Made by a program: the position numbers and the translations under genes. 64,000 bases of DNA from Henckelia pumila (lineage: Eukaryota; Streptophyta; Magnoliopsida; Lamiales; Gesneriaceae): assembly GCF_033568475.1 (NCBI RefSeq), contig NW_027331840.1, positions 558,001 through 622,000 on the forward strand, given 5' to 3'. Every line of letters begins with the position of its first letter. Within the stretch, counting starts at the first letter, position 1. Below, piece by piece: positions 27,600 to 60,887 of this stretch. Under the pieces are notes generated by a model, which ran no database searches, was not told where the DNA came from, and saw nothing but the letters and a program-made list of their open reading frames with translations.

Positions 27600-27780
27600 A
27601 GAGAGATACTCAAGCTTCAACTTGTTTATTTACAACACCAAACATCTCCTTTTATAGGCGTGGAGAAACGCATACATAAATAAAGAGGGGGACCACCCGA
27701 TACTACATAATGGAAAACAGCTCATTTTACATCTGAGTGGATGCCTTTAACATGTGGTGTGGTCCACGATTCATTTGTTT
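27600..27780 (-). promoter_or_regulatory. Pararetroviral pregenomic promoter region, block 1
   Basis: On the minus strand, a TATA box CTATAAAAGG at about 27649-27657 lies just after the transactivator-like ORF. An AATAAA signal follows at 27630-27625. A TATA box followed closely by a poly(A) signal at the start of a long leader (27600-27016) is the arrangement of 35S-type caulimovirus promoters. Confidence 0.6.
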
Positions 27781-28986
27781 TTACATTGTGTCACTTTCTG
27801 AATCACTGGTACATTCAGACCATTTCTTTATTGGTTTGTCTTCTTTGACAGCTGCTTCTTCTGTCTGAATGGGTTGGCAATGTCCACATTTGTGAGTGAA
27901 AATCATTGTTCTTAGTCTTTGACATAGCATTTGTTGGGTTTCTTGGGTCATGTCAACTCTTGCTTCATAGATTGGAGCTTCGAATTGAGCTAACATGACT
28001 TGTTCTTTCTTTTGGATTGTCTCCTTGTGTCCAGTGGTTAATAAAATTTTACTAGTTGCAAAATTTATTTTAACCTTTGAGTTTCCATCAATATTTCCTG
28101 TCTTTGAGATCATGTCAATCAATGTCTTTATTCTTATTTCAGGAAGTGTTGAGATATCCATTACTGGTTTCTCTTCATTTGATCCTTCGAATAAGAACTT
28201 GTCTTTTTGTTTTCGACATTGAATATATACCATTGGTTGATAGAATTTGTTATCATCCCAATCTGGAAGGGTTGAGTGAATACTCAATGTTAATACTGGA
28301 TCGTCCTTAAAGACTGCTTTCTTGAACTGGATAACACTATTTCTCAACTGATATGGAAATAGTTCTATTTCTTGATTGTTGGGACTGACTTCCAATCCAC
28401 TTAATAATCCATTTGAAAATAATCTTGCGACTTCATGCGCTGGAGCACCTTGTAGTGTTCTTGCTCTTGATATGCTCTGTGTGTCACAAGTTTGTAGTCA
28501 AGATTCTGCAGATGGTTTGGCTATTCTCAAATAGTTTAGTGTTTCAAAGAATTCAGTCCTGAGTTTTTCTGGAAAATTTGTTTTTTCAAAAATTGGTTTT
28601 TGTGGTCGTAGATTGACCATCTTTCTTTCTCTTGCTTCAAGGGCGCTTTTAAACGTCCTTTCTTTTTTTTTTTTTTCATTTTTCTCGGTGTTGGCTGTGA
28701 CCACCGGTTCTTTCTTCTTTTCTTTTTCTTTTCCTTTTTCACTTTCTTTTTCTTTGTTATCAGTGTTGGCTGTGACCACTGATTGTTTTTCTTTCATTTC
28801 TATTATTTTATCAAATGGAGTTGCCATTTTGATTGGTGTTCTTGGTGAAGATGATGACGACGAAGTTATCATCTTTTCTTCTGTCCTTTGAATCTTTTTA
28901 CTCAAATTCTTTTCCTTTAGTTGAAGAATTTGGATTTCTTCCTGTAAGTCAATCAATTGTTCTTTTAATTGATTTAATTGCTCCAT
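27781..28986 (-). pseudogene. Transactivator/viroplasmin-position ORF, one in-frame stop
   Basis: The frame runs from ATG 28986 to 27781 with a single in-frame TGA at 28500-28498. The N-terminal part is coiled-coil (LKEQLIDLQEEIQILQLKEK), followed by a Lys/Glu-rich low-complexity stretch with a repeated VVTANT motif. The C-terminal part is globular. Its place after the polymerase and before the pregenomic promoter is where ORF VI (translational transactivator) lies in related genera. Assignment is by position; I see no certain miniTAV signature. Confidence 0.5.
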
Positions 28987-28996
28987 TATGCACAAT

Positions 28997-28998
<2 letters not shown>

Positions 28999-29076
<78 letters not shown>
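28999..29076. repeat. (CA)n then (TA)n microsatellite
   Basis: About 25 CA repeats followed by about 14 TA repeats, directly upstream of the transactivator-like ORF on the minus strand. Confidence 0.95.
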
Positions 29077-29079
<3 letters not shown>

Positions 29080-29210
29080 GGTTAGAAATTTAACTCTTTG
29101 TCGTGAGTAACTCGGATAGTTTTATCATGCGTATCATTGCATTTATAAATTCTTTTGCAAGAATTGAATCAATCTGAGATTGATTGTTTTACTCATAGAG
29201 TAATTTATGT

Positions 29211-29367
29211 TTCTGAATATAAATCTCATTTCATCAATTTATATTCCCCATGCTTTCTGAGGCATGTTCGGATGACTGAAAGTCATAAAATAATTCAAGT
29301 TTCTGAATATAAATCTCATTTCATCAATTTATATTCCCCATTCTTTCTGAGGCATGTTCGGATGACA
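29211..29367. repeat. 90-bp direct repeat at polymerase 3' end
   Basis: TTCTGAATATAAATCTCAT recurs with a 90-bp period (29211 and 29301). The shared block runs through AGGCATGTTCGGATGAC. The second copy includes the end of the polymerase ORF, so the duplication spans the coding/non-coding border. Confidence 0.85.
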
Positions 29368-31369
29368 CGTGGTCATTTTCTGGATCACTTAGGATCTTTT
29401 TTGTTATTCCGTTACTAAGGATAGTATAATTTGGATGAAGTTCTCTGGTTAATGCGTCGGATAATGAATTATCCGTTCCTTTGACATGTTGAATCTCGAA
29501 CTGATAATGGTTTAATTCCAATTGCCATCTAATTAGCCTTGCTGCATTTCTCCCTGCATTTCTTGATATTTTTCTTGTCTTAAAATATGTCAAATTCATA
29601 TTATCTGTTCTTACCAAAAACGGTTTAGGGATAAGATAAATTTCATAAGTTCTTATTGTAAATATTAAAGCCAATAATTCTTTTTCGTTTGAATGATAAT
29701 TTAGTTGTGCACTTTGGAAAGTTCCTGATGTGTAATTACATAATTCTTCATTATTTCTGGTAGCTGTTTTAGTAAGTTCTTCTAAATTTCTTTCTCCTGT
29801 ATAAGCTTTTAAACATGCTCCCCAGTATTCATCTGAAGCGTCTGTTTCAATTATTATTATATCTTTATTGGAAGGAAAATATAACTCAGGAAGATTGCTA
29901 ATTATTATTTTTTTAATAGTATCTATGTAATTAGTATCTTCTTTCGACCATTTCCACTTATAGTCCTGTTTTAGTTTTACCTGAAGAGGTTTTCTGATTT
30001 CTGCAAGTTTCTTAATGTAATTTCCAGAATAAGTTAATAATCCTAAAAATCTTCTTAATTGATCTTTATCCTTGATTTCACTAGGAAAATCATGAATTTT
30101 CTTAAGTATATGCGGTTGTAAACAATGTTTTCCATCTTCTATTTGTAATCCTAAATAATTTATTTTTGTTTTGAATAATTGTGCTTTCTTTTCAGAAAGT
30201 ATAATTCCATCTTTATGACAAATATCTAATACCGTTATGAGGTCTTTATAATGTTGATCTAGTGTTTTTGAATAAATTAATATGTCATCTATATAAACAC
30301 AACAAAAATATATATATGATTTAAAAGATTCATCCATATATCTTTGAAAGATACCTGATTCTTGTTTAAGTCCGAAAGGTAATACAGTCCATTGATATTG
30401 TCCTCTTGGACAACTAAATGCTGTAAGTAATTGTGTTTGTGGTTCTAGCTGGATTTGCCAGAATCCTGATTTACAATCTAGACTGGAGAAATATTTCATT
30501 CCTCCTATATAAGATAATAAATCATTCTTGTTTGGGATGTAGTATCCATCCATAATTGTTGCATTATTCATTTTTCGATAATCAATTACCATTCTTTTCT
30601 TATCAGTATCTTTCTTACTGACATAAAAGGCTGGTGAAGAGTGTGGACTTTTACTAGGGATGATTATCTTAAGTTTTAATAATTCTTGAACTTTTTTTTC
30701 AAATATTTTTACATCATTCATGTTACATCTCCTTGGTGCTTCACGGATCGTGATATTAGGGTCTTTGAGTTTTATTGAAGCAATGAATTGTTTTCTTTTC
30801 TTAATTTTGTCCTGAGGATTTTCAGAACAAATATCATGAAATTTCTTCATGATTTCTTTCTCAGGATTAATCGTTAAAATATTCTCTATTTTAAGTTCTA
30901 TTGGATTTGTATTTCGTTTATGAAAATTCTTTGTAAATCCTTCATTTCGTACACGAAATGCTGTTCGAATTTTAGGAATGTAAATCATTGATGATTCTTT
31001 GTTTAAAGTTATGTGATCTTCAAACTGTGTAAAAGGAAGATATTCTCTTAAAAAGTTATTTCCTATTATAATGTCCATTCCTGATTCTATTTGGTATATA
31101 ATGGGTATTACAAATTTTGTTTCTTCAATCTCTATTTTTAATTTTTCTACTACTGTATTAAGCATGATTATTGATCCATCTCCTATTCGAACTTTTAATC
31201 ATTTATCATATTTCTTCCAATAATAATTTGGAAGTATATGTTTACTTCCTAAACACATACTTGCTCCTGTATCAACATAAGCATGTATATGATACGGTTT
31301 ATGTTCTTTTATTTTAATTTGTATTTTTATATAAATACTGTTTGGATTTGTTTTGTTTTTATTATCCAT
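29324..31369 (-). pseudogene. Endogenous pararetrovirus protease/RT/RNase H, one in-frame stop
   Basis: The frame runs from ATG 31369 to 29324, with one in-frame TGA at 31201-31199 near the N terminus. Upstream of that stop is the retropepsin motif YVDTGAS (about 31280). Downstream are the second protease motif DIIIGNNFL, the reverse transcriptase with SSLDCKSGFWQI and catalytic YIDD (about 30285), and RNase H with DASDEYWG, an E in SNEKE, RTDN and a final DAL motif. All catalytic acidic residues are present. The stop separates the protease active site from the polymerase. Confidence 0.8.
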
Positions 31370-32252
31370 TCTCTCAACTTTTTTTAAGTGATTTATAAGG
31401 ATTTTGAATAGATAAGGGTAGAATTGGTATTTTGAAACAAAATTTTCTCTCTCCAGGGAGTGGAAAATAAGTTTTTATGGGTTAGGTATTAAAATGTAAG
31501 TTGAAAATAGGTTTGGGTATTGATTGCAAATTTACCCTTAAATAAACCCACACAACACCCAACTATTAACAATCCTTATTTTTATCTCTCCTTAATTCCA
31601 ATAATACCCCTTTTATCTGCCAAAAATCCCCAACCCAGAAATCGTCAAAATCCATGACAGAACCAGAAGTCCCCTTCTCTCCACAAAGTTCTTCAAAATT
31701 TTGCATTCCAAGTTGACATCTTAAATTAGATTTATTCTGTAAATCGGGGGAAAATTTAATATGTAAATGAAAATTAACAGAAAATAACATATTAACTAGA
31801 TCCTTTCTTCTCCAATCTGTGATGTTTGTTCCAGAGGGACTCGAAGCCGTACGCAGACCTATCAATTAGATCGACTTTGTAAACCCACGACAAAACACAA
31901 ATATATCTCTCTCTCTGTAGCATTGTCGTTCAAATATACAAGTGTTTGGTTCTAGTTCTAGGCTACCCCTGCTGTTACATTTCGAGCTTGAGCAGATTGA
32001 AATCTGTGCAAATTTGAGTGCTCGGTTTGGGGTTTTTGACTTGCTACATGATTTTGAGTTGTGAGACCTGCTGGTGATCACTTTGTGTATTGAATTTTAG
32101 TTGTTTGGAGTGATTTTGGCATTGGTTTAGAGCTTCATTGTTGCTGGGTGAGATTCAAGTTTTCTGTCCACCAAGTTTTTGTGTATTTGCCTACTTGAGA
32201 TTGCTAATTCAAGCTATCGTAAGAATATATATATATATATATATATATAAAG

Positions 32253-34283: not shown

Positions 34284-37081
34284 AAATTCGCATGCATAAT
34301 TAGGGAAAATAATTATTTAAAAATTTATATTTGGTTTAAATTACATTTATGTGTTATTATGTGAATTATGTGCATGATTAAATTTATTTTATCATTTAAC
34401 CCGCATTTATGGTATTTTTAGATTTTTGAGTAAATAAGTTATTTGATCGCGTAGACGGGACCATGGACGGACGAGATACCAACTTTTGAGCCAAAAATAT
34501 TTTATGAGTTTTATGAGCCTTAAAATATTATTTTAAGGTATTTTGTCAAGAAAATTTTAGTATTTAGTTATATATTTATTTAATAATTTATTTTTGGCCA
34601 AAATAAGTCATTTTATTGACTTTTATTAATATTTAAAAATCTCTTAAGTCTTAATTTCGGGATAATGGTTTTTAGTATGAGATTATTATTATTTTTAAGA
34701 TTTTTAAAGATTTTGCTTAAGGTATAATATCTTTATTTTGAGTAATATCTATTATTAATATATTATCTACCCAAAATTTAAACCTAAAACACTCCCTAAT
34801 CTATTCCAAACCCCATCAGACGCCTCCACCCTTTTCTTCAACCCCTTTTCACGCCTCTTAGCAGAAAACTCATCCCCCATAGCCGATGAAGCTCTAATTT
34901 TTAAGATTTTGATTCGTTCGTCGTCCCGGGAACCCGTATACGCATCCACTTTCGTCAATCAATTAAAAAGGAATGTCTAAAACTTTTATTTGGCCACCAT
35001 ATAAGCTATTACTCATGCATGATGTGTTTTATTTCAGATTTTTCATGGAAATTTTGAGTTTATGCATGTATGCCTTGTATTGATGCATGTTCTTGCTTGA
35101 TTGGTCATGACTCACGTTTTTGCCAAGCATGGTATGGTCCAGAGGCTGGGGCTCGGTCAATGGGTGTCCTAGGGTGCCTTAGGGTCGAGTGGTTCGAGTG
35201 GTTTGAGCCATGGTTGGTCTGAACCAAAACAATATCTTCTGGTTGCATAGAAGGTCGCAGTTTGAGCGGTTTTGGGAGAATGATTTGTGTGCACTGCATA
35301 GGACGGGTTTGAGGGAGATTCCAATTGGGTTAGAACCCCAAGACATAGAGGACGTTATCTCAGGTAGTTATCTAGCCAGTGATGGTCGGAGTTGGGCGGC
35401 CGAATGGCCGGAAGTCCGACATCGCGCGCAGCGCGTGAGCAGAAATTAGGCAGATTTTGTTTTGGTTCGTTCTCCTTCGTTAGGACTCCGTTTGGGCTGG
35501 TTTTTAGCTTTCTGGAAACTTCTTGAAGTCTTCTAGGTGTAGGTGGTGGTTCTCCGGCTATTTGGTGACCGGAGTAGGGCGGCCGATGCCTCTGAACAGA
35601 AGCTGGTCGCCCAGCCGAGAAGAGAAGGAGAGGGGTGATCTGGTTTGGGGTTTGGGGGGTTGCTGGGTCGGGTTATGGGTAAGGGTTGAGTGCTGGGTCG
35701 GGTCCGGTAGTCATGGGTCGGGTTAAGTCGGTCCGGGTCCGGGTTAGGTGGGCCGGGCTTGAGTATTTTAATTTTTAAATGTTTAATGTTTTAATTGGTT
35801 TTTGGGCCAATGAATTAGAAATAAAATTATTTGGACCTCCAAATAATTTTATTTGGGCCTTAAATAATTTATTTAAATTAGCACAATGATTTTTATGGGC
35901 TTGGGAGTCCATGAGAATTTTTGGGCCAGTCAGTGGATTTTGGGCCAGTCTAGAGTTTTATTGGGCTTAAGTTAAGTAATTGGGCTTAAATATTTTATTT
36001 AGGTCAAGTTAAGTTTAATTAAGTTATTTGGGCTAAAATATGATTATTGGATTTTATTTAAGTTTAATGGCCTTAGAGTGAGTGATCATCAGTCTGGACC
36101 AACCCATAAAAATTAACTAAGTCCGGAATACATATTTAATTCTTTTTTTTATGCATGAAGTTTATTTTAAGTATAAGTATATTTATTATTAATATTAATT
36201 AAATATATATTACAGACATATTTTAAGTGCATGCATACATGAAATAATTTATGATGTGTTTATGATTAAGAATTGAACATGAAAAATATTTTTATGGAAA
36301 TTGAAGTGGTGTGACAGCACAGAGGTGGTTTACCACCGGCACAGAGGTAGTTTTACTACCGGCATAGAAGTGGTTTTACCACTGGCACAGAGGTAGTTTA
36401 CTACCAGCATAGAGGTGGATTTATCCACCACCACGTACGATGGTTTCTAGACTGATCAGTCGGCACGGTTATTAGTCACATTCATGGATATGACCATACT
36501 CAGTTTTTATGATTATGACATGCTCAGTTATGCTATGTATGATTAGTTATGATGTATGTATGATGATCATAGTTATGGCTAGCAAGAATTCATGGTGCAT
36601 ATTTTTAAGAGCATGCATGCATACTCATGATATTATATGTATTTAGTATAATTATGTGATGCATTATTTTAAACCTCGTTATCAAGGATTAGACATGTTG
36701 AGCCTTTAGGCTCACTATGCTTATATGATGCATGTGAGTATAATGATGTCTATATAGCTCCTACCGGTGGCGAGGACGTATGAGCACACGGAGTAGTGGA
36801 CCCCGTGACCGTCGCAGTTATTTAGTTTATTATGTTGAGTTTTGAAACATGTTTTATTTTATTATTGTTTCCGCATATGAGATTTTTCAGCAGCATTGTT
36901 TATCATTTTAAATTGATGCATGAAACATTTTTAAGGATTTATTTATTTAATATTTTTTCAGGTTATTTAAGAAATGTATGTTATTTTTTTATACATATAT
37001 GTATGGGCGTATATGTATAGTATTATTTTTAGTACATTTTAGTATAAAAAAAAGTTTTTCCGCATTTTATTAGTAGTGGGA
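34284..37081 (+). mobile_element. Inverted copy of the long LTR
   Basis: Matches the LTR at 39238-41941 in opposite orientation, lacking about the first 30 and last 10 bases. Shared landmarks include GATCGCGTAGACGGGACC, the hairpin array and AATAAAATGCGG. Identity looks like roughly 90 percent by eye, so the copies are not recent. Open frames inside (for example 35210-35449) show no protein signature. Confidence 0.7.
36316..36435 (+). repeat. Array of five short hairpins in LTR
   Basis: Units of about 22 bp separated by GCACAGA or GCATAGA. Each contains its own palindrome: GGTGGT/ACCACC, GGTAGT/ACTACC, AGTGGT/ACCACT, GGTAGT/ACTACC, GGTGGAT/ATCCACC. The stems differ from unit to unit but stay paired. 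Confidence 0.85.
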
Positions 37082-37660
37082 AAAGGGTGGAGGCGTCTGA
37101 TGGGGTTTGGAATATATTATGGAGTGTTTTAGGTTTAAATTTTGGGTAGATAATATATTAATAATAGATATTACTCAAAATAAAGATATTATACCTTAAG
37201 CAAAATCTTTAAAACTCTTAAAAATAATAATAATCTGATACTAAAAACCATTATCCCGAAATTAAGACTTAAGAGATTTTTAAATATTAATAAAAGTCAA
37301 TAAAATGACTTATTTTGGCCAAAAATAAATTATTAAATAAATATATAACTAAATACTAAAATTTTCTTGACAAAATACCTTAAAATAATATTTTAAGGCT
37401 CATAAAACTCATAAAATATTTTTGGCTCAAAAGTTGGTATCTCGTCCGTCCACGGTCCCGTCTACGCGATCAAATAACTTATTTACTCAAAAATCTAAAA
37501 ATACAATAATTACGGGTTAAATGCTAAAATAAATTTTAAATCATGCATATAATTCACATAATAAGACATAAATGTCATTTAAACCAAATATAAATTTTTA
37601 AATAATTAATTTCCCTAATTATGCATGCGAATTTACGTATTAAAATTTCCGGGTGTTACA
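37082..37660 (-). mobile_element. Truncated 3' LTR of composite element
   Basis: Matches about 41362-41941, the first 579 bp of the LTR in minus orientation, ending GGTGTTACA. It is joined directly to the inverted LTR copy at 37081/37082, giving a foldback. Confidence 0.7.
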
Positions 37661-37678
37661 ATTCTCCCCCCCTTAAAT
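37661..37678 (-). other. Polypurine tract of composite element
   Basis: The minus strand reads TTTAAGGGGGGGAGAAT directly before the LTR start TGTAACACC. Confidence 0.7.
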
Positions 37679-39223
37679 TGAATTTCGTCCTCGAAATTCG
37701 ACTGATCAAACTCTAGTAACGGAGTCCTTAAAAAATCCAATTTACTATATCCACTATTACATATCTAGTTCCCAAGCTTCGGTATCCCAAAAGTCATGCT
37801 TCTACTGCGCACTCTGATAAACAAAATATTTTTTCTTTTCCAAATCTATTTATTTAAACGTAATGACTTGAACATCAAACCCAATACAACTTACTTGGTA
37901 ACACCAACCATGCGAACCCTTAAACCTTATCGAAGATTATCCAATTTTTTATTAAACTACCTCCACGATTATTCTTATTCTCAAAGATTAAAGAACCTAA
38001 TACAAAACATACTTATCATCAATTTTATACCTCATATAATTAAGAGTGCAAACTTAAAACCACAAACCATCAACTATAACCTTATGGTACAAGTGTCATC
38101 TCCAAGAAAATCATGACTTATTCGTCAAAGGAAAAAAAAAACTTAATAGTTAAATGAATGACAATATGATATCTGTGAACCCAACTAGCATGATTTGACA
38201 CATGCAGACTTAACTCCTAAAAATATATACTAGCCTCTATAAAGTAACATTTTAAATTCACCAAAACAGAAAATGATACAACCCTCGATTAATCAATCTT
38301 GCGAGGAATCCTACTCTTGGCTCAAGAAATAATTATATTGTTATCACAAAAACTTAATACCTTTTATCGGAATTTACCTTTATTGTTCTATTTATCGTTA
38401 CACCTTCATAAAAATTTTCTAGATAGTCCCGCTACCTCTTACCATCACAAACGCAATAATTTATCAATGAAATCATTCTAACTTAAAATCAATAAGTTAC
38501 TACAAAAATTCAAGTGACAACATATCTCATAAATATCAAACTTAGTTTCAACAAAATAAAAAAAACCGAATTCCCAAATTCAAAATTCCTCGTGGTCAAC
38601 ATGTCGTATAAAATGTCTTGGGGCATACGACATCACTAGACATTCTTCACGTAAATCGCAATGCACAACTAATTATTTTAAAACTTTGCTAACATAAAGT
38701 CTTAAGTCATAACATATGCTCCTGATAAATCATAATAAAACATTTAAAACTTACAGACCGGTAGTGGGATTTCTGAGCTTCACGTGACAGATGGACACCC
38801 TCCAAGGACCGTTCTCTGATACCAATTGAAACGCCTACTACTAATAAAATGCGGAAAAACTTTTTTTTTAAAAATAATACTATACATATACGCCCATACA
38901 TATATATATATATAAAATAACATACATTTCTTAAATAACCTGAAAAAAAATATTAAATAAATAAATCCTTAAAAAACCGAATTCCCAAATTCAAAATTCC
39001 TCGTGGTCAACATGTCGTATAACATGTCTTGGGGCATACGGCATCACTAGACATTCTTCACGTAAATCGCAATGCATAACTAATTATTTTAAAACTTTGC
39101 TAACATAAAGTCTTAAGTCATAACATATGCTCCTGATAAATCATAATAAAACATTTAAAACTTACAGACCGGTAGTGGGATTTCTGAGCTTCACGTGACA
39201 GATGGACACCCTCCAAGGACCGT
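37679..39223 (-). other. Non-coding internal region of composite element
   Basis: No gag, protease or polymerase motif is seen in any frame. Scattered short frames have no family signature. The last part contains a 411-bp tandem duplication. The element would depend on proteins from relatives. Confidence 0.6.
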
Positions 39224-39392
39224 TCTCTGATACCAATTGAAACGCCTACTACTAATAAAATGCGGAAAAACTTTTTTTAAAAAAATAATACTATACATAT
39301 ACGTCCATACATATATGTATATAAAAAATAACATACATTTCTTAAATAACCTGAAAAAAAAATATTAAATAAATAAATCCTTAAAAATGTTT
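38571..39392. repeat. 411-bp tandem duplication across LTR end and primer site
   Basis: TTCCCAAATTCAAAATTCCT starts at 38571 and again at 38982. Both copies contain the primer site and the LTR terminus ACGCCTACTACTAATAAAAT. The copies differ at a few positions (AAAATGTC versus ACATGTC; GCATACGAC versus GCATACGGC). Confidence 0.9.
39224..39235 (-). other. tRNA-Met primer-binding site of composite element
   Basis: The minus strand reads TGGTATCAGAGA two bases after the LTR end GCGTTTCA. A duplicate lies at 38813-38824 in the tandem duplication. Confidence 0.75.
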
Positions 39393-41941
39393 CATGTATC
39401 AATTTAAAATAATAAACAATGCCGCTGAAAAATGTCATATGCGGAAACAATAATAAAATAAAACATGTTTCAAAACTCAACACAATAAACTAAATAACTG
39501 CGACGGTCACGGGGTCCACTGCTCCGTGAGCTCATACGTCCTCGCCACCGGTAGGAGCTATATAGACATCATTATACTCACCTGCACCATATAAGCGTAG
39601 TGAGCCTAGGGGCTCAACATGTCTAATTCTTTATAACAAGGTTAAAAATAATGCATCACGTAGATACTAATACATATACATGTACATGAGCATGCATGGA
39701 AACATTTTTTTCATAACATAAATGTTGAATCATAAATCTTAAACATAACATAACTTTCTTCATCATACATAACATAATTGAGCATGTCATAAACATAAAA
39801 AACTGAGTATGGTCATATCCATGAATGTGACTAATAACTGTGCCGACTGATCAGTCTAAGAACCATCGTACGTGGCGGTGGATAAATCCACCTCTATGCT
39901 GGTAGTAAACTACCTCTGTGCCAGTGGTAAAACCACTTCTATGCCGGTAGTAGAACTACCTCTGTGTCAGTGGTAAAACCACTTCTATGCTATCACATCA
40001 CTTCAATTTCCATAAAAATATTTTTCATGCTCAACTCTTAATCATAAACACATCATAAAATATTTCATGTATGCATGCACTTAAAATATGTCCGTAATAT
40101 ATATTTAATTAATTGTTTAATAATAAATATACTCTTACTGAAAATAGAATTCATGCATAAAAATAATTAAATATATATTTCGGACTTAGTTTATTTTCAT
40201 GGATTGGTCCAGACTGCTGGTCTCTCTACTAAACTTCTTAACTGACTTAAAGCTCATTATCTAACTTAACCCATAATTAATAAATAATTTTAAAAATTAT
40301 AAATTTTACTAAATAAAATACTTTAAATATTATTGGGCTTATATAAAAATATTTAGGCCCATTAACTAATTGATTCATAAAAATTCTTGGACTGGCCCAA
40401 TAAAATCACTGACTGGCCCAAAAATTCCTATGGGCCCAAGAGCCCATAAAATCATTGGATTAACTTAAAAAATAATTTTGAAAGCCCAAATAATTTTATT
40501 TCTAATTAATTGGCCCAAAAACCAATTAAAACATAAAATACTTTAAAATTAAATTACTCGAGCCCGGCCCACCTAACCCGGACCCAGACTCACTTGACCC
40601 GACCCTAGACTCTACTGACCCGACCCACTACCCTGACCCGATCCGAAACCACCCTGAACCCTCAAACCCGATCCCCCTCCCTAACCATCTCGGCTGCGCG
40701 AGCAGCAGGCCTTCATGGCCTGCTGCCGCCCGGCTTCGGCCGCCCCTGGCCGGAGCCCTACCGCCCAGACGTAGCCCACGTCTAGGCGGTCCTAACCTAG
40801 CCCCTGAACCCAAGCCATGCTGCCCAGCCCTTCGCCAAACCGAGCCCTTCCCGTGAACCCTAAACCTGCGCACCTACAACCCCTTCCAACAGTTCCTGAT
40901 CGGCCAGCCCCCTTACCAGCCTATAACCTAGCCATGGCTCGAATCTTAGGACCCCAACTCACCTCTGACCCGAGTCCCAAGCCCCTGGACCGAGCCATGA
41001 TGAAGAAAAACGTGAATCATGCCAACAACAATATCAAACATACATCAAAACCTTTCATACAAGCATAACTCGAAAAGTTCCTGATAAAATCTGAATAAAA
41101 CTCATCATGCATGGTTAATAGCTTATATGGTGGCCAAAAGAAGGATTTAAACATGCCTTTTATTTATTTGACGAGAAGGACGCGTATACGAGGCTCCGGG
41201 ACGACGAACGACCAAAAATCTTCAAGGAGGGTTAATTGATTGACGAAAGTGGATGCGTATACGGGTCCCCGGGACGACGAACGAACCAAAATATTCAAAA
41301 CTAGAGCTTGATCGGCTATGGGGGATGAGTTTTCTGCTAAGAGGCGTGAAAAGGGGTTGAAGAAAAGGGTGGAGGCGTCTGATGGGGTTTGGAATAGATT
41401 AGGGAGTGTTTTAGGTTTAAATTTTGGGTAGATAATATATTAATAATAGATATTACTCAAAATAAAGATATTATATCTTAAGCAAAATCTTTAAAACTCT
41501 TAAAAATAATAATAATCTGATACTAAAACCATTATCCCGAAATTAAGACTTAAGAGATTTTTAAATATTAATAAAAGTCAATAAAATGACTTATTTTGGC
41601 CAAAAATAAATTATTAAATAAATATATAACTAAATACTAAAATTTTCTTGACAAAATACCTTAAAATAATATTTTAAGGCTCATAAAACTCATAAAATAT
41701 TTTTGGCTCAAAAGTTGGTATCTCGTCCGTCCACGGTCCCGTCTACGCGATCAAATAACTTATTTACTCAAAAATCTAAAAATACAATAATTACGGGTTA
41801 AATGCTAAAATAAATTTTAAATCATGCATATAATTCACATAATAAGACATAAATGTCATTTAAACCAAATATAAATTTTTAAATAATTAATTTCCCTAAT
41901 TATGCATGCGAATTTACGTATTAAAATTTTCGGGTGTTACA
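39238..41941 (-). mobile_element. 5' LTR of composite element (2.7 kb)
   Basis: Begins TGTAACACCCG at 41941 and ends GGCGTTTCA at 39238 on the minus strand. Contains the hairpin array (about 39878-39995) and a GC-rich interior (40560-40990) whose frames carry no recognised protein. Confidence 0.7.
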
Positions 41942-43981: not shown

Positions 43982-44196
43982 GAAAAATGGGGGATAATTA
44001 TTGACTATGCCCCTAAAGTTTTCTAACTTTCCCAAAAATATACTAACACATTATTTGAGGCCAATTACGTCCTTCCTTTTATAAAAAAGTTCCCTGAAAT
44101 TTCCCCCAAAACTAAAAAGGTTCCCTGATATGTCCTCCAAACTAAAAAATTCTCTATACTATACTTTGTATAAAAATTTCCCTTTGGCTCACAAAA

Positions 44197-44208
44197 TGGT
44201 ATCAGAGC
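44197..44208 (+). other. tRNA-Met primer-binding site, viral block 2
   Basis: TGGTATCAGAGCC matches initiator tRNA-Met, just upstream of the first viral ORFs. Confidence 0.85.
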
Positions 44209-44286
44209 CTAGGTAATTTTATTCAGACTTTATATTATTCATTAAATCATACTTTTCTTTATTGAGGAAGAGATTTTCAACAAACC

Positions 44287-44430
44287 ATGGTTTCAAACAG
44301 GAGTTTGAACCAGGAGGATTTCATTTATATGAAATCTCATAAACAAGTGAATCTATTTAAAATAGATTCTTTACAAAAGAAACTTAGGTTTTTTATACTC
44401 TCTGAAGAGATTAAGAAATATGATATCTAG
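44287..44430 (+). CDS. Unrecognised small viral ORF (47 aa)
   Basis: Starts in a good context (CCATGG) 80 bases after the primer site and ends in the start region of the next ORF (ATGATATCTAG overlap). Charged, Lys-rich. No family recognised; its position is that of the first small ORF of a pararetrovirus. Confidence 0.45.
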   Translation: MVSNRSLNQEDFIYMKSHKQVNLFKIDSLQKKLRFFILSEEIKKYDI

Positions 44431-44791
44431 TTCTCAATTTTTAGAGATTACACCAGATTCCTCTAAACTTTCCGGAGATCTTAGAGAAATTCAAAAGACG
44501 GTACAATATTACAGCAATCAGTTGTATGAAATACCTCGACTGATTGGAGAAATCCTTAAGAAACAAGAAGAAATTCTTGTAACTCTTAAGGATCTTCAAA
44601 CCAAAATCATAAATCTAGAACACACTTCTAGTTCTAGAAAGGGAAATACAGGAGGAAGGTTACCTCTCTCATTTGGTACCGAGCCTCTGTTACATCAGAA
44701 AGGTAAAACCAAAATGGTTCAAAAACCTTTAACTGATGATGAGATGATGATTAATCTTATAAAAGCAGTATCAGAGAAAAACACTATCTGA
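44420..44791 (+). CDS. Small coiled-coil viral protein (123 aa)
   Basis: Predicted coiled coil in the middle (IGEILKKQEEILVTLKDL), then a Ser/Gly-rich linker and a basic patch (HQKGKTKMV). It overlaps the coat-protein start by one base (TGATG). Position and coiled coil resemble the virion-associated/ORF2 proteins of badna- and caulimo-type viruses. Confidence 0.5.
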   Translation: MISSSQFLEITPDSSKLSGDLREIQKTVQYYSNQLYEIPRLIGEILKKQEEILVTLKDLQTKIINLEHTSSSRKGNTGGRLPLSFGTEPLLHQKGKTKMVQKPLTDDEMMINLIKAVSEKNTI

Positions 44792-46194
44792 TGACTACTT
44801 TAGAAAGATTAAATCTCGAAGATCTACAAGATCTTGCGGATTCTTTTGCGAATCTCAAAGTAGTAGATCTAAAAATGAATTCCCCTGAGGGTGAACCACT
44901 CATTGGACAACCCACAGGGAATCCCCCTAGATATGTGGTAAAAATAGAAGAACCACATAGTGAGTTCCATGTTGGAGAAAATTCACATCCAGCAGGAACC
45001 AGATCAAGGAGTAGGATACCAATACATCAAACTCCTTATGGAAAAACTGTTTTAGACCCGATACATCCTTATGGAGTTATGTTAAACCTGGATGTTCTGG
45101 ACTTTAAAAACAGAGAAGATCTCATAGATGACTGGACATCAGCTATGAGAATTGCAGTAGGGACATTAGATCTCAATAAAGAAGGATTCATTAAACTTCT
45201 AGAAATGAGTCTAATGAGATCTGTTAAGATCGCATGAGAGATGACTATGCTAGAAACTAAGGAATCAATCTTAGCAGGAGAATCACTCAGCGAGATTGGA
45301 GGCAGAATGGCCACCCTATTTAAAGTACAATTCATAGGGGTAGACTATTTTAATAATCAAGATACAGAGAAAAAGAGAAGATATACTCAAGCTCTGTATA
45401 GTCTCGAATTACATGATATCTGTTTAGTTGATGAATACATTATGTTATTCACTAAATACAGATGGAATTCGGGAGTCGAGGAAAATATAGCTATTCAGCT
45501 ATTTTTCGCAAAAATGCCAAGTCCCTGGAGAGAAATGATGATTAAAAAATACGTTCCAGGAAATCTTGATACGTTGGCAAGACGCGCATCTTTTCTAAAA
45601 GGAAAATTGGCAGAATGGTGCCATATGGCAGCATTACAGAAGAACTACAAGAAAATAAGGGGTATAGATAAACGTACACCTTTATGTTGTAGAGAAAATG
45701 ATCTTCCAACAATCATTGGAAACATATCACAGGGATTTAAAAGAAAGAAATTCAGAAATAATCCCTATAATAAAAGAAAGAGAATTTCTTGGAAACCAAA
45801 AACATTTTGGTCCAAACAAAAGGCCAGATCTTATAGATCAGGTAGAAGAAGTGGACCTACAAGAACACCCCCAGCAACAAACTCATCACAAAGCAGGGGA
45901 AGAACACCATCAAGAAGAACTTTCAGAAGAACTCATACAAGAGCAAGTGAAAGTTTCAAGGATTGCAACTGCTGGACATGTGGAGCAAGAGAACATATAT
46001 CTACGAATTGTCCGGAAAACGAGAAAAAAGGAGTTAAACTCTTTGAAGCAACACCATATATGGATGATGCGGTTTTCTTTCAAGATCTAGTCCAAGTATA
46101 TCAATTTGAGAATATCCCCTCAGATGAAAGCATATACGAAGAAGAGATATTGTTTAGTCAAGAAGATTCTGAGGATGAATCAGAATCAGAATAA
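44791..46194 (+). pseudogene. Endogenous pararetrovirus coat protein, one in-frame stop
   Basis: A single frame of about 467 codons with one in-frame TGA at 45235-45237. The first part is acidic. The second part contains a capsid-like region, a long Arg/Lys-rich stretch (about 45745-45950), a zinc knuckle CNCWTCGAREHISTNC (CX2CX4HX4C) near 45965-46010, and an acidic tail ending DSEDESESE. The architecture is the same as the coat protein of block 1, but the sequence is clearly divergent. Confidence 0.75.
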
Positions 46195-47222
46195 AGAGGA
46201 AGTGTTTCGGCATGAAACACATGAAAGTTTGGCTGGATTCTTTAGCCAAACCACTATATCTCATAATATGGTCCAAAGGATTATGAGAGAAAATCCAACG
46301 TTACAAAAATACCAAGGATTTTCAGCAGGACAAGTAGAAAGAGTCTTAGGCAACCTCGGGCTTAGACAAAGAAGATATAATTTGATTTACAAAGTATCCA
46401 GAAGGGAAATGGCAATCCCTATGGAGTTAACAAGTAATCAAATAGAGATGCAGTTAATTCCTTTTGAAGAAGTAAGAGAGGAATTGCAGAAGCTAAAAAG
46501 TGAGGTAGCAAGAACAATGTCTTGGATTCATATTGGAGCAATCCAAATAATGATCAAGGCAACTTTTAAAGAAGGAATAGATTCACCCATAGATATCGTA
46601 GTATGTGATAAAAGAATGGGGAATATCCAAGATGTTGTTCTGGGTACGATCTCAGGAAATCTATGTGCAGGGAAAATTGTAGGAGTTATTTATCCAAGAA
46701 TAACCTACAATTTGGCTGACAGAGACTTTAGTCGAGCCTTGACGTTGCATCAAAACTTCAAAGAAAAAAAGATTAATGAAGGAAGATAATAGACCATATT
46801 CTATTACTTATCAAATTTCATATGCTCTTTCTAATACTCATCATTCCGAATTATTCATTAGAAATGAGTTTATTGAAATTCCAGAAATCTTTGGGAAAGT
46901 TGCTCAAGCAATATACCCGGAAAGAATCGAGTTTCCTTTAATTCAAGAAACATACATTCAAATACAAGATAAACCGGTTCTATACAGAGATCTTAAAATA
47001 GAACCCCGAAGGTTATCTTTTCAAGGTGACCGAATGACAAGTCGAATGTGGGAAAAATCTCCTATTCAGGAAATTCCACCAGAAGAAAAGGAGTTTTCAA
47101 TAATAGGAAAACTTAGATCTCCAGAAGGATGGAAAGAAGTCAAGATAGTATTCGAAATTACAAGTCATCGGAACCAATTTCCTTGTAACTCGATTTACTA
47201 TTTAGAGAAGCAGGTAACATGA
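46175..47222 (+). pseudogene. Endogenous pararetrovirus movement protein, frameshifted
   Basis: ATG at 46175 overlaps the coat-protein end by 20 bases. The 30K-type core has HIGAIQIMIKATFKEGIDSP and DKRMGNIQDVV. The frame ends at 46789, and the similarity continues in another frame from 46776 to 47222 (YQISYALSNTHH, matching the block 1 movement protein NYVVGLAISN region). Further open sequence to 47399 (GLINIGELEVQICGIPGKEV) follows in a third frame and may belong to this protein or to a linker before the protease. Coat before movement gene is the order in cavemovirus/solendovirus-like genomes. Confidence 0.65.
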
Positions 47223-47511
47223 ACTTACCACGGACTAATAAATATTGGAGAATTGGAAGTTCAAATCTGTGGAATTCCAGGAAAAGAAGTGGATCAACTC
47301 ATTCTTGGCCTAGAATTTTTGGAGGACCATAAACCATGGAAACGCCTTGAAAAAGGAATAGAGTTTATGGCAAAAGAAAAGACTTGGAGGATTCAATAAG
47401 AATTGTACGAGATGGAAAACTAAGAGAATTGGATAAGGGACAATCCCTTAATCAGATTCGAAAACTCTGTTTACAAACAGAGGAAGAAGCAACTGTTGAG
47501 ATTAGTAAGTC

Positions 47512-49650
47512 ATGAACATGATTTATTGGCGCATTGAAGAAGTGGAAATGAGTAACCATACTCTACCTTCTGAAGCCTTAGGAAAACTAAAGGTGAATAG
47601 GCTTAAGCGGATTACTGAGTTACAACACAGTTTGTTAAAAATGGCAGGGTCATTTAGTAATCCCTTTAAAAGATGTATGAACAATATAAGGCTGAATACT
47701 TTGCAACTTATATTGACTGAGGAGCAGGAATTTGTACAGAAAAAAGAGGAGTTTTTCCTGAAGAATGGGAAAAAGAATTGCCAAAAATTGCTGGACGAGA
47801 TTTCTCTCAGAATTTTAATTCTTTGCAAAGGAATAAAAAAAGCAGAGATCCTTATGGGAGGAGCAGGTCAAACACCTTTGTACAAGGTAAAGACGCCTCC
47901 AATCTATTTCCATGATACAGGAGCCGATATCCTGTTAGGAAATAACTTCTTACAAATGTTTAAGTACACACAAGACAATGAGTCAAGAAGACTTATGTTC
48001 ACTACAATTTGTGATCATAAAATTATCGTTCAACGACTCAAGGTTGCTTTTTATCGACAATTGTCGATCATATTTCGCAGCCAGCGTGGTGATAAAGGAC
48101 AACTTTTCCACCCAAAAATGAAAGACCCAAGAAGGTTTGGAGAAACCATGTTGAAAATAACAACAGAACAAAAACTCCAAACAGAGGATATGAAGCTTCT
48201 CAAGGTAACTCTTAATCACAGAGATATAGAGTTAGAAGATAAGGTATCCCTTGAAGATGTCAAAAAGAGGCTCAAAGAAAGTTACAACGAGCATCCTTTG
48301 GCATGGTGGGATAGAAATCAACTCAAAGCCAGCCTTACTCTAAAGGAAGGCAAAGAGTATGAATTCGTCAGATATAAGTCTATCCCAATGAACATAACAG
48401 ATCAAAGGGATATGAGAATGATTATCAAGGAACATTTGGACCTTGGTCTAATCAAGGAAGGAATTTCACCATATAGCAGCCCAGGTTTTCTGGTTAGGAA
48501 TCATGGTGAAATAAAAAGAGGGAAACCCAGATTAGTTATTAACTACCAAGGTATTAATAAAATCCTGGAGTTTGATGGGTACTTCATACCCAGTAGAGAA
48601 CATCTAATTAGCTGTGTACGAAATGCTAGAGTGTTCTCAAAATTTGATTGTAAGTCTGGATTTTACCAGATTCGAATGGAAGAAGGCAGTAAGAAATTTA
48701 CAGCCTTCTCTACACCACAAGGACATTATATTTGGGAAGTTATGCCTATGGGATTGGCTAATGCACCCCAAATATTTCAAAGAAAGATGGATAATATTTT
48801 TAAGGATTATTTCAACTTCATGTTTGTTTATATTGATGATATTCTTATAGCATCAAAAAATATAGATGAACATGTTAAACATTTAGAGATTTTCTCTAAA
48901 ATTTGTAAACAAAAAGGACTGGTTTTATCTGAAAAGAAAGCGGTCATAGCAACAAGGAAAATTGAATTCCTTGGAATTGAGATTGATGAAACTGGAATAA
49001 TTCTACAACCCCATATTGTGGAAAAGGTAAAGAATTTTCCAGATAAACTCAAAGATGTAAAACAACTCCAAAGTTTTCTAGGAGTAGTTAATTTTGCAGG
49101 AATGTTCATAAACAATCTGGCAATGTACAGAAAGGTGTTCAGTCATTTGTTAAAAAAGGATGCAAGGTTTATATGGACCGATGACCATACTAGAGGGGTG
49201 AACCAATTAAAGGAGATATGTAAGAATCTCCCAAAAATGGCTATACCCGTGGATGAAGATGATCTGGTGCTATTTACAGATGCTAGTGACGAATGGTGGG
49301 CAGCAGTGCTTACTAAAATCACTCCAGATGGAGAAATACCATGCAGATATTGTAGCGGTCTTTTTTCAAAATCCGAGGCTATCAGATGACATGTCAACGA
49401 GAAGGAATTTTATGCAGTTAAAAGGGCTTTCAAAAAATGGCCATTATTTTTACTTGCTAAAAAATTAACTTTGAAAGTTGATAACACTCAGGTAAAAGCT
49501 TTCTTAAGAAATAAGATTGAATCTAAACCTGAGAAAGCTAGGTTTTTAAGATGGCAAGCTTTATGTCAAAATTATATTTTTGATATTGTTATTATTAAAT
49601 CTCATGAAAATATTCTTGCAGATTTCTTAACAAGAGATGGAAGGCAGTGA
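47512..49650 (+). pseudogene. Endogenous pararetrovirus protease/RT/RNase H, broken
   Basis: The main frame contains the protease motif DILLGNNFL (about 47930), RT with FSKFDCKSGFYQI, catalytic YIDD (about 48830), and RNase H start DASDEWWAA. An in-frame TGA at 49387-49389 cuts RNase H. The same frame then continues with NEKEFYAVKR and LADFLTRDGR to a stop at 49648. The N-terminal protease active-site region (near 47715) reads in a different frame and has a stop at the expected DTG position. At least two lesions inactivate it. Confidence 0.75.
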
Positions 49651-50584
49651 CGTAGATTCCATCATGAAAATGCAGAGGCATCTCAGGGAACACCTTGGAT
49701 TGCTTCAAATCGAGTTCAACCAGCTTGTCATAAGTACTGATATGGCAGGCAGGTTACAACAAGCTGATCGGATCAAAGTATCCAATCGAATCACAGGATG
49801 TATGCAAGCCCAAACTTAACTATGGGATACTATTCAAGGTCCAATTATGCGGGCCATAGAGAGACCATTGGTTTCTCAGAAACAAGAAATGTTAAAACCA
49901 TTGGTTTTACAAGAGCAAGAAATACAGCCACCGGTTGTAAATCAAGAAACAAGCGCTAATCTATCATCAACTTTTGATGATCTAGACAAAGCAACAATCG
50001 ATGAGGAAAACTCATCAAGTCAACCCTCCACCTCTGGGGTAAAAGAGGAAGAGATCAATCTTAGGCCCAACACTGACAAGGGCAAAGCTAAGATTGATAC
50101 TAACCCAGCTGTCATTTCTCCGTTTCAGGTTTATCAACAAAGATGGGATAAATTAAATACAAGAAGTGAAATTAACCCAATCACTTGCAGGGTTGATGTT
50201 GCAGGAATATATCCAAGGGTTTGGCTAAAAAATAATGCCAACCCTAAGGATGTAAAACTATGGTATGAATTTGGGGCTTTGGCCTCAGTTTATACAACTT
50301 CACCAAGCTTCCAGGAAATATTACAGCTACCAAAATGGATTCAGGAAGCAGTCCAAAAAACATGGGCAAATAATGATCATTTGTCCAGAGGAGATGTGCT
50401 CGAGCTATACTTCTTTAGTGCAACTCCAGAACCAACAGGGAAAGGATCACATGAGCCCTTTCATTTCATCAAGCTAAGGAGACCTGACATAAATAATCAA
50501 AAATTTATCAAGGATCCTATATTGAAAGAGATACCATTAGTATCCACTTTTGGAGAAAATGAAATCTCAACCAGAAGGGCATAG
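49637..50584 (+). pseudogene. Transactivator-position viral ORF, one in-frame stop
   Basis: The frame starts at ATG 49637, overlapping the polymerase end by 14 bases, and ends at 50584, with one in-frame TAA at 49817-49819. The N-terminal part is helical; the middle is Gln/Ser/Glu-rich (SSSQPSTSGVKEEE). The C-terminal globular part (VYQQRWDKLN, LPKWIQEAVQ) lies where the translational transactivator is expected. The function is inferred from position. Confidence 0.55.
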
Positions 50585-51164
50585 GGTATTTGGGTTTGTC
50601 TCACCGAGATGGACAAGGTCAAGTTTCCATTCAAATTTTATCATAATTCCGTGAATGGATCATTCCTGTAAAACACAATGACAGGAAAAACTACGGCTTT
50701 TGCGGAAGAACTCTTCGAAAAGAAGAGGAACTTTTTGTGGAACAACAAGCTGCCGGGAAGTAAAGAAACTCGCCGAAAATTCTGTAACATGGCTCACATC
50801 GGAAGATGGTCAGAGAATATCTGCCCAGAATGTCCAAACCAGAAGGAGCCAGAATTCGGAAAAACCTTCAAACCCCGAACGGATCGTAAGGATTTTTCCG
50901 AGACAAGCAAAGGTGGACAGGGACCACCAAAACCGCGTTTTCCCAGGGGCCCACTGCAAAAGCAAAAGATGCCCCGACAACAATAAAGAAGGCATGTGAG
51001 GAGAATAAATCCAAAATAAAAAGTCAAGCATGTGACTCCTCCACTAGTAAAAGATGTCATCGGGCATGTGACTTGCCCACTAGCGAAAGATGCCTTCAAT
51101 AATGACATAAAGAATTCAAGACAACTGTAAGATTCTCTGAAGTTTCTCAGTGAAACGAGTGGAA

Positions 51165-51245
51165 CTTCAGCTATAAATACAGGCTCTTAAGGAAGCTGAA
51201 GACATCGATCATTCCCTTCAGTTTTCTTACAAAATAAAACATTGT
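51165..51245 (+). promoter_or_regulatory. Pararetroviral pregenomic promoter, block 2
   Basis: TATA box CTATAAATAC at 51171-51180, with an AATAAA signal at 51233-51238. Upstream (51030-51110) are repeated GTGACT and GATGCC-type motifs. The spacing fits a 35S-type promoter with a poly(A) signal in the leader. The leader continues to 51803 without a protein-coding frame. Confidence 0.6.
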
Positions 51246-51812
51246 AATATTTCTCTTTCTAAGTTTGTATTGAGTTTTACTTTTATGTATTTAAAAAACA
51301 AGGCTACTATGAGTAGCTAAACTAGTTATCTCCTCCTCTTCAAAGGAGGTTGATTTATGTAATAATATGTTGTCTGAATAAATTTCCTTAGTCTCTTGTT
51401 CATCCATGCTCTTTTTTTATAATTAATATTATATACCGTACGCCTTAAGGTAGAAAACGAATTAAGGCTGTGCTGGGTGTCGTTGAAGGAGCTTGTGCAG
51501 AAACCATCTGTTGCGACTGCGTGGTTGAGGTGTGAGGAGCACTTCGTAAAACTCGGCAGGTATGACCCGATGACACTATGGTCAAAGAGGTATTTAATTT
51601 TAATTAATCTTACGGAAGCATGATGGGCATATGCATAATTTTAATAAAATTGGGAAATAAAGGGCAAAATAGGTATTATTTAGTTTCAAGTACATGTTCG
51701 AGACACTTTTTAATTATTAAGGGATATTTTCAGGGCAAGAAAAACAAAAGGGATATAATTGGCCCGTTAACGAAACTAGAGGGATATATTTAGGAATTAT
51801 CCCGAAAAATGG

Positions 51813-59678: not shown

Positions 59679-60887
59679 TTAAGTCAGTTCCTCAGGTATA
59701 AGTCCTAAATTCTTAGCGAACCTATTAGATGTAAACGAATGTGTGACACCAAAATCAAATGAAACATATGTAGACACATTGTTGATTAGAATGGCACCTG
59801 TCACGATTTTGTTTGAACCACCTGCTTCTTCTTGAGTAATGGCATAGACACGAGCATTGGGTTTATTTTCCTTTGATTGGCCTTGAGTAGTAGTATGTGG
59901 TCCTATCCTTGCCTTAATGGTTTCGGTACATTGAGCAATTCGGTGTCCGAATTTTCCATAGTTGAAACAGGCACCAGTGTTTCGACGACATTCCCCTTCA
60001 TGTCGGAGGTTGCAAGTGGGGCATAGCTTGATCTGTGGAGGGTTTGGAGCAACATAAGTTTCCTTGAAGGATTCATCATAATTGTTCGAATGCTTGGACA
60101 CGTGTTCGTGTGAAGAAGATTGGCCAGGCAGAGGTCGTTTGTTGTGGAAGTCATTCTCACGACGCTTGATATCTGATTCAGCTCGGATGGCCGCTCCCAT
60201 AAAGTCTGCAAAGTTGGCAGGCTGATAAACTGCTAATGCCGACTGTATACGACTGTTCAACCCCTTCTTGAAACGGTGCAACTTTAGATCGTCATCTCCC
60301 ATAATTGTTGGGGCATAGGACCCGAGCTCATTGAACTTGGAGGCGTATTCCACCACTGTCATATCTGGTGTTTGCGTAAGGTTTTCAAAATCGCTCAATT
60401 TCTGCATTCGAACCTCAGCTGGAAAGTACTGCTTCAGAAATGCGGTACGAAACTGTTGCCATGTGATTGGTCCCGCTGCTAACATGGCTGGTGAGACAGC
60501 TTCCCACCACTTACTTGCTTTGTCTTCGAGGAAGGGTATCGACACCTCTACTTTTAGTGCTTCAGGAACTTCAAGTAGACGCAGTTGGTCCTCCATCTTC
60601 TTCATCCAATTTCGTCCCACCTCTGGGTCAGCATCTCCCTTGAACATTTCAGTTCGATTCTTGCGAAGAGATTCATAATGGAATTTGACCCCATTCTGAG
60701 CAGGTGGAGGAGGTGGCGGATTGCCATTGTCGTTGCCGTTGCCATTTGTATTTCCCATCCCTTGGAGGGTCGTCGCCACTATTGCTGCGATAGCCGCAAG
60801 GTCTTCTCTGCTAAGACTGATTCCTGGAGGTGGATTCGCATTATCCCCACGATTGTTGTTGCGTGTTCTTGGGGGTTCTCCGGCCAT
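59679..60887 (-). CDS. Retrotransposon Gag with residual protease start (402 aa)
   Basis: ATG at 60887. It has a Pro/Asn/Gly-rich N terminus and a retrotransposon Gag core (KASKWWEAVSP, TWQQFRTAFLKQYFP, EFNELGSYAP). The zinc knuckle is altered: CFNYGKFGHRIAQC has Tyr where the second Cys is expected. The C terminus starts a retropepsin fold, but the active site reads DFGVTHSF rather than DSGATHSF, and the frame then stops. The protein could still form particles, but both nucleic-acid binding and protease activity look impaired. It resembles Gag of Tekay-type chromoviruses. Confidence 0.8.
   Translation of the reverse strand: MAGEPPRTRNNNRGDNANPPPGISLSREDLAAIAAIVATTLQGMGNTNGNGNDNGNPPPPPPAQNGVKFHYESLRKNRTEMFKGDADPEVGRNWMKKMEDQLRLLEVPEALKVEVSIPFLEDKASKWWEAVSPAMLAAGPITWQQFRTAFLKQYFPAEVRMQKLSDFENLTQTPDMTVVEYASKFNELGSYAPTIMGDDDLKLHRFKKGLNSRIQSALAVYQPANFADFMGAAIRAESDIKRRENDFHNKRPLPGQSSSHEHVSKHSNNYDESFKETYVAPNPPQIKLCPTCNLRHEGECRRNTGACFNYGKFGHRIAQCTETIKARIGPHTTTQGQSKENKPNARVYAITQEEAGGSNKIVTGAILINNVSTYVSFDFGVTHSFTSNRFAKNLGLIPEELT

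What the first reader, a model, noticed from the sequence alone, without database searches (positions are those of the whole stretch)
43982..51812. Second pararetroviral genome with the same kind of borders (element 2)
An unrelated viral genome, divergent in sequence and gene order, is bounded by GGGATAATT/AATTATCCC and a perfect GAAAAATGG duplication. It lies cleanly inside a copia element whose two halves rejoin at that point, so the empty site can be read directly. Two independent cases in one window make chance unlikely.
Basis: partly seen in the sequence, partly recalled or inferred. Interest (0 to 1): 0.9.

Follow-up and report, generated by a model that had tools for sequence, protein, structure and literature searches.

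The report
Plant virus genomes with transposon ends
In this plant genome, whole plant-virus genomes of a kind that lacks an integration enzyme sit as clean units between DNA-transposon-type ends with the matching 9-base target duplication, in a large family of copies, which points to a real integration route where DNA-repair accidents were assumed.

Summary
Element 2 (43991-51803, 7813 bp) is a caulimovirid genome bounded by GGGATAATT/AATTATCCC and a perfect GAAAAATGG duplication. Two copia relatives run through the empty site with one copy of the 9-mer. The window's own genome holds a large family: of 29 copies paired, 15 have exact 9-bp and 7 exact 10-bp duplications; mismatched flanks gave 0 of 810. 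A subfamily (B) carries nearly the same virus between different ends: 7 of 10 copies read have exact 9-bp duplications. The swap limits are the tRNA-Met primer site and a point about 30 nt past a TATA-like box. RT, movement and coat genes are under purifying selection between A and B (dN/dS 0.08, 0.11-0.15, 0.20), and RT within A (0.15). Element 1 is an independent second case. Best reading: a replicating pararetrovirus lineage carries Mutator-type ends in a non-coding stretch and is inserted whole by a host Mutator-type transposase. Unit insertion is shown; circular intermediate and transposase are inferred.

The parts
43982..43990 (+). left copy of the 9-bp target-site duplication GAAAAATGG (host copia sequence)
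   Evidence: single copy at the empty site in L017/L018
43991..44196 (+). left terminal block, begins GGGATAATTATTGACTATGCCCC; not alike subfamily B, whose ends differ
44197..44208 (+). TGGTATCAGAGC, initiator tRNA-Met primer-binding site (identity recalled); left limit of the swapped end block
44420..44791 (+). ORF of 123 aa, no Pfam family
44791..45237 (+). ORF of 148 aa, no Pfam family over cut-off
45241..46194 (+). coat protein ORF; zinc knuckle weak (0.014, under cut-off); dN/dS A-B 0.20
46106..47222 (+). movement protein, in two overlapping ORFs in this copy (46106-46789, 46776-47222); dN/dS A-B 0.15 and 0.11
47512..49389 (+). protease / reverse transcriptase / RNase H ORF; the RNase H match stops short of the family's end; dN/dS A-B 0.08
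49847..50584 (+). ORF of 245 aa in the transactivator (TAV) position (position recalled), relatives of up to about 400 aa in Sesamum and Perilla; no integrase or transposase family
51591..51597 (+). TATTTAA, TATA-like box; RNA start about 30 nt downstream is inferred
51627..51803 (+). right terminal block, ends AATTATCCC; replaced as a whole in subfamily B
51804..51812 (+). right copy of the target-site duplication GAAAAATGG

Best explanation
Element 2 is one copy of a high-copy pararetrovirus (Caulimoviridae) lineage that carries Mutator-type terminal inverted repeats in a non-coding part of its genome and is inserted into chromosomes as a single genome-length unit with a 9-10 bp target duplication. 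Shown: clean unit insertion, empty site, many sister insertions, different end types on nearly the same virus, and purifying selection on viral genes between end types and, for RT, within one. Inferred: (i) the cutting and joining enzyme is a host MULE transposase acting in trans; (ii) the lineage multiplies through its own reverse transcriptase as circular DNA in which the two ends lie back to back in the leader between transcription start and tRNA primer site; (iii) ends were exchanged between lineages by template switching of strong-stop DNA, whose limits (RNA 5' end and primer site) match the observed swap limits.
For: Borders and duplication; empty site. Family A: 29 paired copies: 15 exact 9-bp, 7 exact 10-bp, 3 with 8/9, 1 with 7/9, 3 none; flanks of different copies, 810 combinations: 0 exact 9, 0 exact 10, 0 with 8/9, 10 with 7/9 or more. 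Subfamily B: 10 copies read: 7 exact 9-bp, 1 with 8/9, 1 with unreadable right border, 1 with different ends not scored. A and B agree 0.90 / 0.86 on the viral side and 0.59 / 0.59 (shuffled 0.56 / 0.58) on the end side of the two junctions. Left-end patterns with up to 3 mismatches: 133 (58 with at most 2) for A and 199 for B, reversed-pattern controls 0 and 0; 36 of 70 RT places have a listed left end 3.0-4.5 kb upstream, shifted control 0 of 350. dN/dS A-B: RT 0.08 (104 pairs), MP 0.15 and 0.11 (40 pairs each), CP 0.20 (20 pairs); MP and CP in other frames 0.5-3.4; RT within A, 55 deep pairs, 0.15 against 0.98 and 0.93 in the wrong frames. MULE transposase domains: 150 scored of 1188 candidates, over the cut-off. 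The MuDR end begins GAGATAATTGCC and a 9-bp duplication is called diagnostic of Mu (PMC2563033, passages).
Against: No back-to-back end junction was found in the genome by exact pattern: A 1 site, unrelated sequence; B 0. Within B ratios are 0.42 (RT), 0.95 and 0.90 (MP), 0.58 (CP); within A MP part 2 is 0.52 and CP 0.46, though MP part 1 is 0.19; the 8 other element-1 copies look neutral among themselves. So the latest bursts need no selection on viral genes. The joined leader of A folds no better than coding controls (z -3.8 against -0.8 to -5.5; B -6.2 to -8.6). The TATA-like box is kept in 4 of 6 B copies aligned. No MULE with matching ends was identified; the loci could not be cut. 3 of 29 pairs lack a duplication, and 8 of 37 copies tried could not be scored.
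Confidence: 0.62

Rival explanations
1. Pack-MULE-like hitchhiking: a MULE captured a whole viral genome and then amplified as an ordinary non-autonomous DNA transposon; viral genes are passive cargo. A and B would be separate captures of viral DNA with the same defined ends.
For: Ends, 9-10 bp duplications and unit insertion; near-neutral change within B and among most element-1 copies, and MP part 2 0.52 and CP 0.46 within A; no circle-junction relics; abundant MULE transposase domains.
Against: RT dN/dS 0.15 among 55 deep pairs that all carry A-type ends and MP part 1 0.19 within A; 0.08-0.20 between A and B; it needs repeated captures at the same two viral points.
Confidence: 0.28
2. Ordinary filler-DNA integration during double-strand-break repair, as assumed for endogenous caulimovirids.
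For: It is a published default (PMC10377300 section 3.1; PMC13308828 passages).
Against: Does not give constant ends plus exact 9-10 bp duplications in 22 of 29 copies or an exactly restored empty site.
Confidence: 0.02
3. A virus inserted by chance inside a pre-existing MULE at this locus, without ever moving as a unit.
For: Would explain the local anatomy of a single copy.
Against: Unit copies at other sites with their own duplications: 22 of 29 A copies and 7 of 10 B copies exact.
Confidence: 0.01

Closest known systems
Endogenous caulimovirids (cavemovirus/solendovirus-like by gene order; that likeness is recalled, not tested)
   Same: coat, movement, protease-RT-RNase H genes, tRNA-Met primer site, genome length, no integrase found
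   Different: published copies are attributed to repair-mediated insertion, often next to TA repeats or rearranged; here single genome-length units with TIRs and 9-10 bp duplications
Mutator-like elements / Pack-MULEs
   Same: 9-bp duplication, ends starting GGGATAATT against MuDR GAGATAATT, TIR-bounded cargo
   Different: cargo is a whole viral genome whose genes show purifying selection between subfamilies; no transposase family among its ORFs
Teratorn (piggyBac-herpesvirus fusion of medaka)
   Same: a whole virus genome between DNA-transposon ends, multiplying in the host genome (PMC10175614, abstract start and passages)
   Different: there a herpesvirus fused with a piggyBac transposon; here a reverse-transcribing virus with ends only
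LTR retrotransposons
   Same: RT, RNase H, tRNA primer
   Different: no terminal direct repeats, no integrase found, 9-bp instead of 4-6 bp duplication (4-6 bp recalled)

Membership tests
Caulimoviridae | RT/RNase H, movement protein and coat protein of the caulimovirid type | tested here: met
   PF00078 3.9e-35, PF01107 3.7e-22, PF22909 7.9e-7
Caulimoviridae | A3 aspartic protease | tested here: inconclusive
   element 2 0.0049, under cut-off; element 1 5.1e-22
Caulimoviridae | Met-tRNA primer site | tested here: met
   exact TGGTATCAGAGC at 44197; its identity as the Met-tRNA site is recalled
Caulimoviridae | no integrase | tested here: met
   none among 7 ORFs nor in 6 relatives of the 245-aa ORF
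Caulimoviridae | encapsidated circular dsDNA | not testable with these tools
   -
Mutator-like elements (non-autonomous) | target duplication of about 9 bp | tested here: met
   22 of 29 exact 9 or 10 bp
Mutator-like elements (non-autonomous) | terminal inverted repeats of Mu type | tested here: met
   23 of 31 arm match; MuDR start GAGATAATTGCC; beyond about 31 nt the arms of element 2 diverge
Mutator-like elements (non-autonomous) | mobilised by a MULE transposase | not testable with these tools
   transposase domains present, binding unknown
Pack-MULE | passively carried captured genes | tested here: inconclusive
   dN/dS 0.08-0.20 between A and B and RT 0.15 within A speak against; near-neutral ratios within recent bursts and repeated capture remain possible
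LTR retrotransposon | direct terminal repeats | tested here: not met
   none among the 20 largest of 44 direct-repeat families joins the ends

The most novel reading that the evidence does not exclude
A pararetrovirus with a true proviral cycle: its RNA leader hairpin is made of the two arms of a Mutator-type terminal repeat, so the same stretch serves as leader, strong-stop region and integration site, and a transposase borrowed from host MULEs integrates (and may excise) the circular viral DNA. The ends are exchanged between lineages by reverse-transcriptase template switching.
Probability: 0.35. Interest if true: 0.96.

Novelty: new variant of a known kind. Interest (0 to 1): 0.88.

Why it matters
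How integrase-less caulimovirids enter and multiply in plant genomes is stated to be speculative (PMC10377300, section 3.1 read) or unknown (PMC10175614, passage). Here the answer for one family can be read from sequence: unit insertion with transposon ends and target duplications. It makes the question testable elsewhere, for example in pepper, where a 100%-identity cluster of 951 solendovirus RT sequences is reported (PMC9794742, passages). It also adds a reverse-transcribing virus to the virus-transposon fusions known from DNA viruses such as Teratorn.

Tried and rejected
Fold energy of the joined leader as a test: rejected, 4 of 5 coding controls of the same length scored as low as or lower than A (z -3.9 to -5.5 against -3.8; the fifth -0.8); B scored -6.2 to -8.6 in 3 copies. 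Circle or head-to-tail junction relics: none; the only exact A-pattern site (C2:31498648) is unrelated sequence, B gave 0. Matching autonomous MULE: transposase places listed but their flanks could not be cut. Similar-looking ends GGTATAATTCATCACTGTGCCCC, 3 of 3 fetched, have no primer site and no similarity to the virus in the 430 bases read; they may be ordinary MULEs, not followed. Genus assignment by tree: not attempted. Element-1 dN/dS over all 36 pairs is uninformative (0.68 in frame, 0.52 and 0.89 off frame); only the comparison with the window copy shows third-position excess.
Full report
What is there. The window is G000:C86:558001-622000 of an 885-Mb plant genome with four large contigs of 183-233 Mb. 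The plant is not named. RT relatives of element 2 are annotated in Sesamum at up to 75% identity (one 77% hit has no name), and relatives of the 245-aa ORF in Sesamum and Perilla, so it is probably in or near Lamiales (inference; Lamiales recalled). The finding's borders are exact: GAAAAATGG, GGGATAATT, 7.8 kb, AATTATCCC, GAAAAATGG. Inside, on the plus strand, are two small ORFs, a coat protein, a movement protein, a protease-RT-RNase H gene and a 245-aa ORF in the position where relatives carry a transactivator (position recalled). Coat precedes movement protein, an order I recall for cavemoviruses and solendoviruses; I did not test the genus.

Empty site. The flanks joined without the block and one 9-mer (338 nt) find two genomic places that match from end to end at 92.5%, with one copy of the 9-mer (GAGAAATGG) and no gap at the junction. 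The right flank leads into copia reverse transcriptase.

A family that moves as a unit. Of the candidates for the first 210 bp 40 of 362 were scored, of those for the last 210 bp 40 of 367. From both lists I paired 20 sister copies by place: 16 span 7.8-7.9 kb, 4 span 10.5-17.5 kb. For 17 further right ends I fetched the place where a left end was expected. Of these 37 copies 8 could not be scored: 7 had no left end in the stretch fetched and 1 right end was matched but not fetched. In the 29 others 15 have an exact 9-bp duplication, 7 an exact 10-bp one, 3 match 8 of 9, 1 matches 7 of 9 and 3 none; in one of the last three (copy a) only the inner 29 nt of the left end matched, so its border is not real. 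Copies 14 and o share flanks and are probably one insertion duplicated. Flanks of different copies, 810 combinations, gave 0 exact at 9 or 10 bp, 0 with 8 of 9 and 10 with 7 of 9 or more. A left-end pattern with up to 3 mismatches occurs 133 times, 58 with at most 2, against 0 for the reversed pattern; the 3-mismatch hits are mixed and include at least one other end family.

The same virus with other ends. I read the ends of ten RT places that were not among the A pairs. Their ends are GAGTCAATTATGAATAAATCCCC and, inverted, GGGGTAATTATTTTAAAATCCC; the arms are 67-78% alike over 69-139 nt in 9 of 10 copies and 70% over 235 nt in the tenth. Seven of ten have exact 9-bp duplications, 1 matches 8 of 9, 1 has an unreadable right border and 1 has different ends and was not scored. 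This B left end occurs 199 times with up to 3 mismatches, reversed control 0. Of 70 RT places (one fragment row of 71 dropped) 36 have a listed A or B left end 3.0-4.5 kb upstream on the same strand; coordinates shifted by 20-100 kb gave 0 of 350. Only 14 A ends (at most 1 mismatch) and the first 100 of 199 B ends were given to that count.

Where the ends were exchanged. Between A and B the match stops abruptly on both sides: on the left about four nt before TGGTATCAGAGC, on the right at window 51626. Over 80 nt the viral side agrees 0.90 and 0.86, the end side 0.59 and 0.59, as in shuffled sequence (0.56, 0.58; 9 right and 7 left ends of the ten copies; 2 left ends lacked an exact primer site). 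In a circle these two limits enclose one block. A TATTTAA box lies at 51591-51597, so the right limit is near a predicted RNA start and the left limit is the primer site: the span of minus-strand strong-stop DNA (the replication scheme is recalled). Of 6 B copies aligned 4 keep the box. The published leader of most pararetroviruses is a large stem-loop, in many genera upstream of the primer site, thought possibly to stem from an inverted repeat (PMC5902531, passages and section 18). Joined end blocks do fold across each other (104 of 120 pairs in A), but 4 of 5 coding controls have z-scores as low, so the fold proves nothing for A; three B leaders scored below all five controls.

Selection. 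Nei-Gojobori counts on the RT piece (window, 12 A, 8 B copies): A-B 104 pairs, median dS 0.250, dN 0.020, ratio 0.08; A-A 78 pairs 0.19; B-B 28 pairs 0.42. Movement protein A-B 0.15 and 0.11 (40 pairs each), coat 0.20 (20 pairs); in the other frames 0.5-3.4. Within A, movement protein part 1 is 0.19 and part 2 0.52, coat 0.46; within B 0.95, 0.90 and 0.58. RT within A: 55 pairs with dS over 0.08 give 0.15 in frame and 0.98 and 0.93 out of frame; 23 close pairs give 0.41. So lineages that bear A ends evolved with a working RT, and probably movement protein. Close pairs look much more neutral, as after insertion. The 8 B RT pieces have no stops, but I had picked places listed as stop-free; 7 of 12 A pieces have at least one. 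In one search, 29 of 70 RT places are listed without stops. This is the main argument against passive hitchhiking and it is not absolute: repeated captures from a free virus would also give it.

Element 1. Borders TTAAATAAA with GGGCAACTT and GGGTAAATT ends. For its left end 40 of 529 candidates were scored; of 12 copies tried, 8 have both ends, and of these 5 have exact 9-bp duplications, 2 match 8 of 9, 1 matches 5 of 9; 3 had no right end in the stretch fetched and 1 only part of it. The circle is opened between coat stop (23867) and protease start, and the primer site lies inside (27002-27013). The 72 best RT places are 92-100% identical to it. Eight RT copies differ among themselves rather evenly over codon positions (552, 385, 555), whereas the window copy differs from them mainly at third positions (18/13/61 for L175 to 27/21/61 for L182), so selection is seen between subtypes there too.

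Mechanism. Shown: unit insertion with 9-10 bp duplications by constant inverted ends, in two virus lineages, with viral genes under selection in the element-2 lineage. Known from papers: 9-bp duplications are diagnostic of Mu insertion and the MuDR end begins GAGATAATTGCC (PMC2563033, passages). Inferred: a MULE transposase acts in trans; at least 150 PF10551 matches exist here, a number of them in open frames over 700 aa. Inferred and weaker: circular intermediate and template switching. No end-to-end junction relic was found.

Known or not. Caulimovirids have no integrase; integration is called speculative, with repair or LTR-retrotransposon machinery as hypotheses and one sentence on a transposon-derived integrase (PMC10377300, section 3.1; passages). 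PMC9794742 mentions a transposon-mediated process in general terms (passage). My searches for pararetroviruses or caulimovirids with TIRs, TSDs, transposase, MULE or Mutator showed no report of such elements. I saw titles and abstract starts only; some searches listed 20 of 100, 12 of 238 and 12 of 18 papers, and only open-licence PMC papers are held, so a report may exist that I did not see.

Noticed in passing
1-22340: Tandem array of about 6.3-kb units, three full copies sharing 97% of 15-mers and a partial fourth; an F-box gene piece with a TPR1-like domain recurs in it at 5272-5772, 11564-12007 and 17866-18348.
   Followed up: partly
34495-41702: Inverted repeat, arms around 34.5-37.4 and 38.5-41.7 kb, with a 411-bp tandem duplication at 38560-39387.
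   Followed up: no
L167-L169 (C1:46863337, C2:23963764, C3:81982661): Repeated ends GGTATAATTCATCACTGTGCCCC without primer site or viral similarity in the bases read; possibly an ordinary MULE family related to the element-2 ends.
   Followed up: partly
23778-31537: Element 1: independent pararetrovirus family with 9-bp duplications, circle opened between coat and protease genes.
   Followed up: yes
59679-60887: Ty3-type gag and protease ORF near the right end of the window.
   Followed up: no
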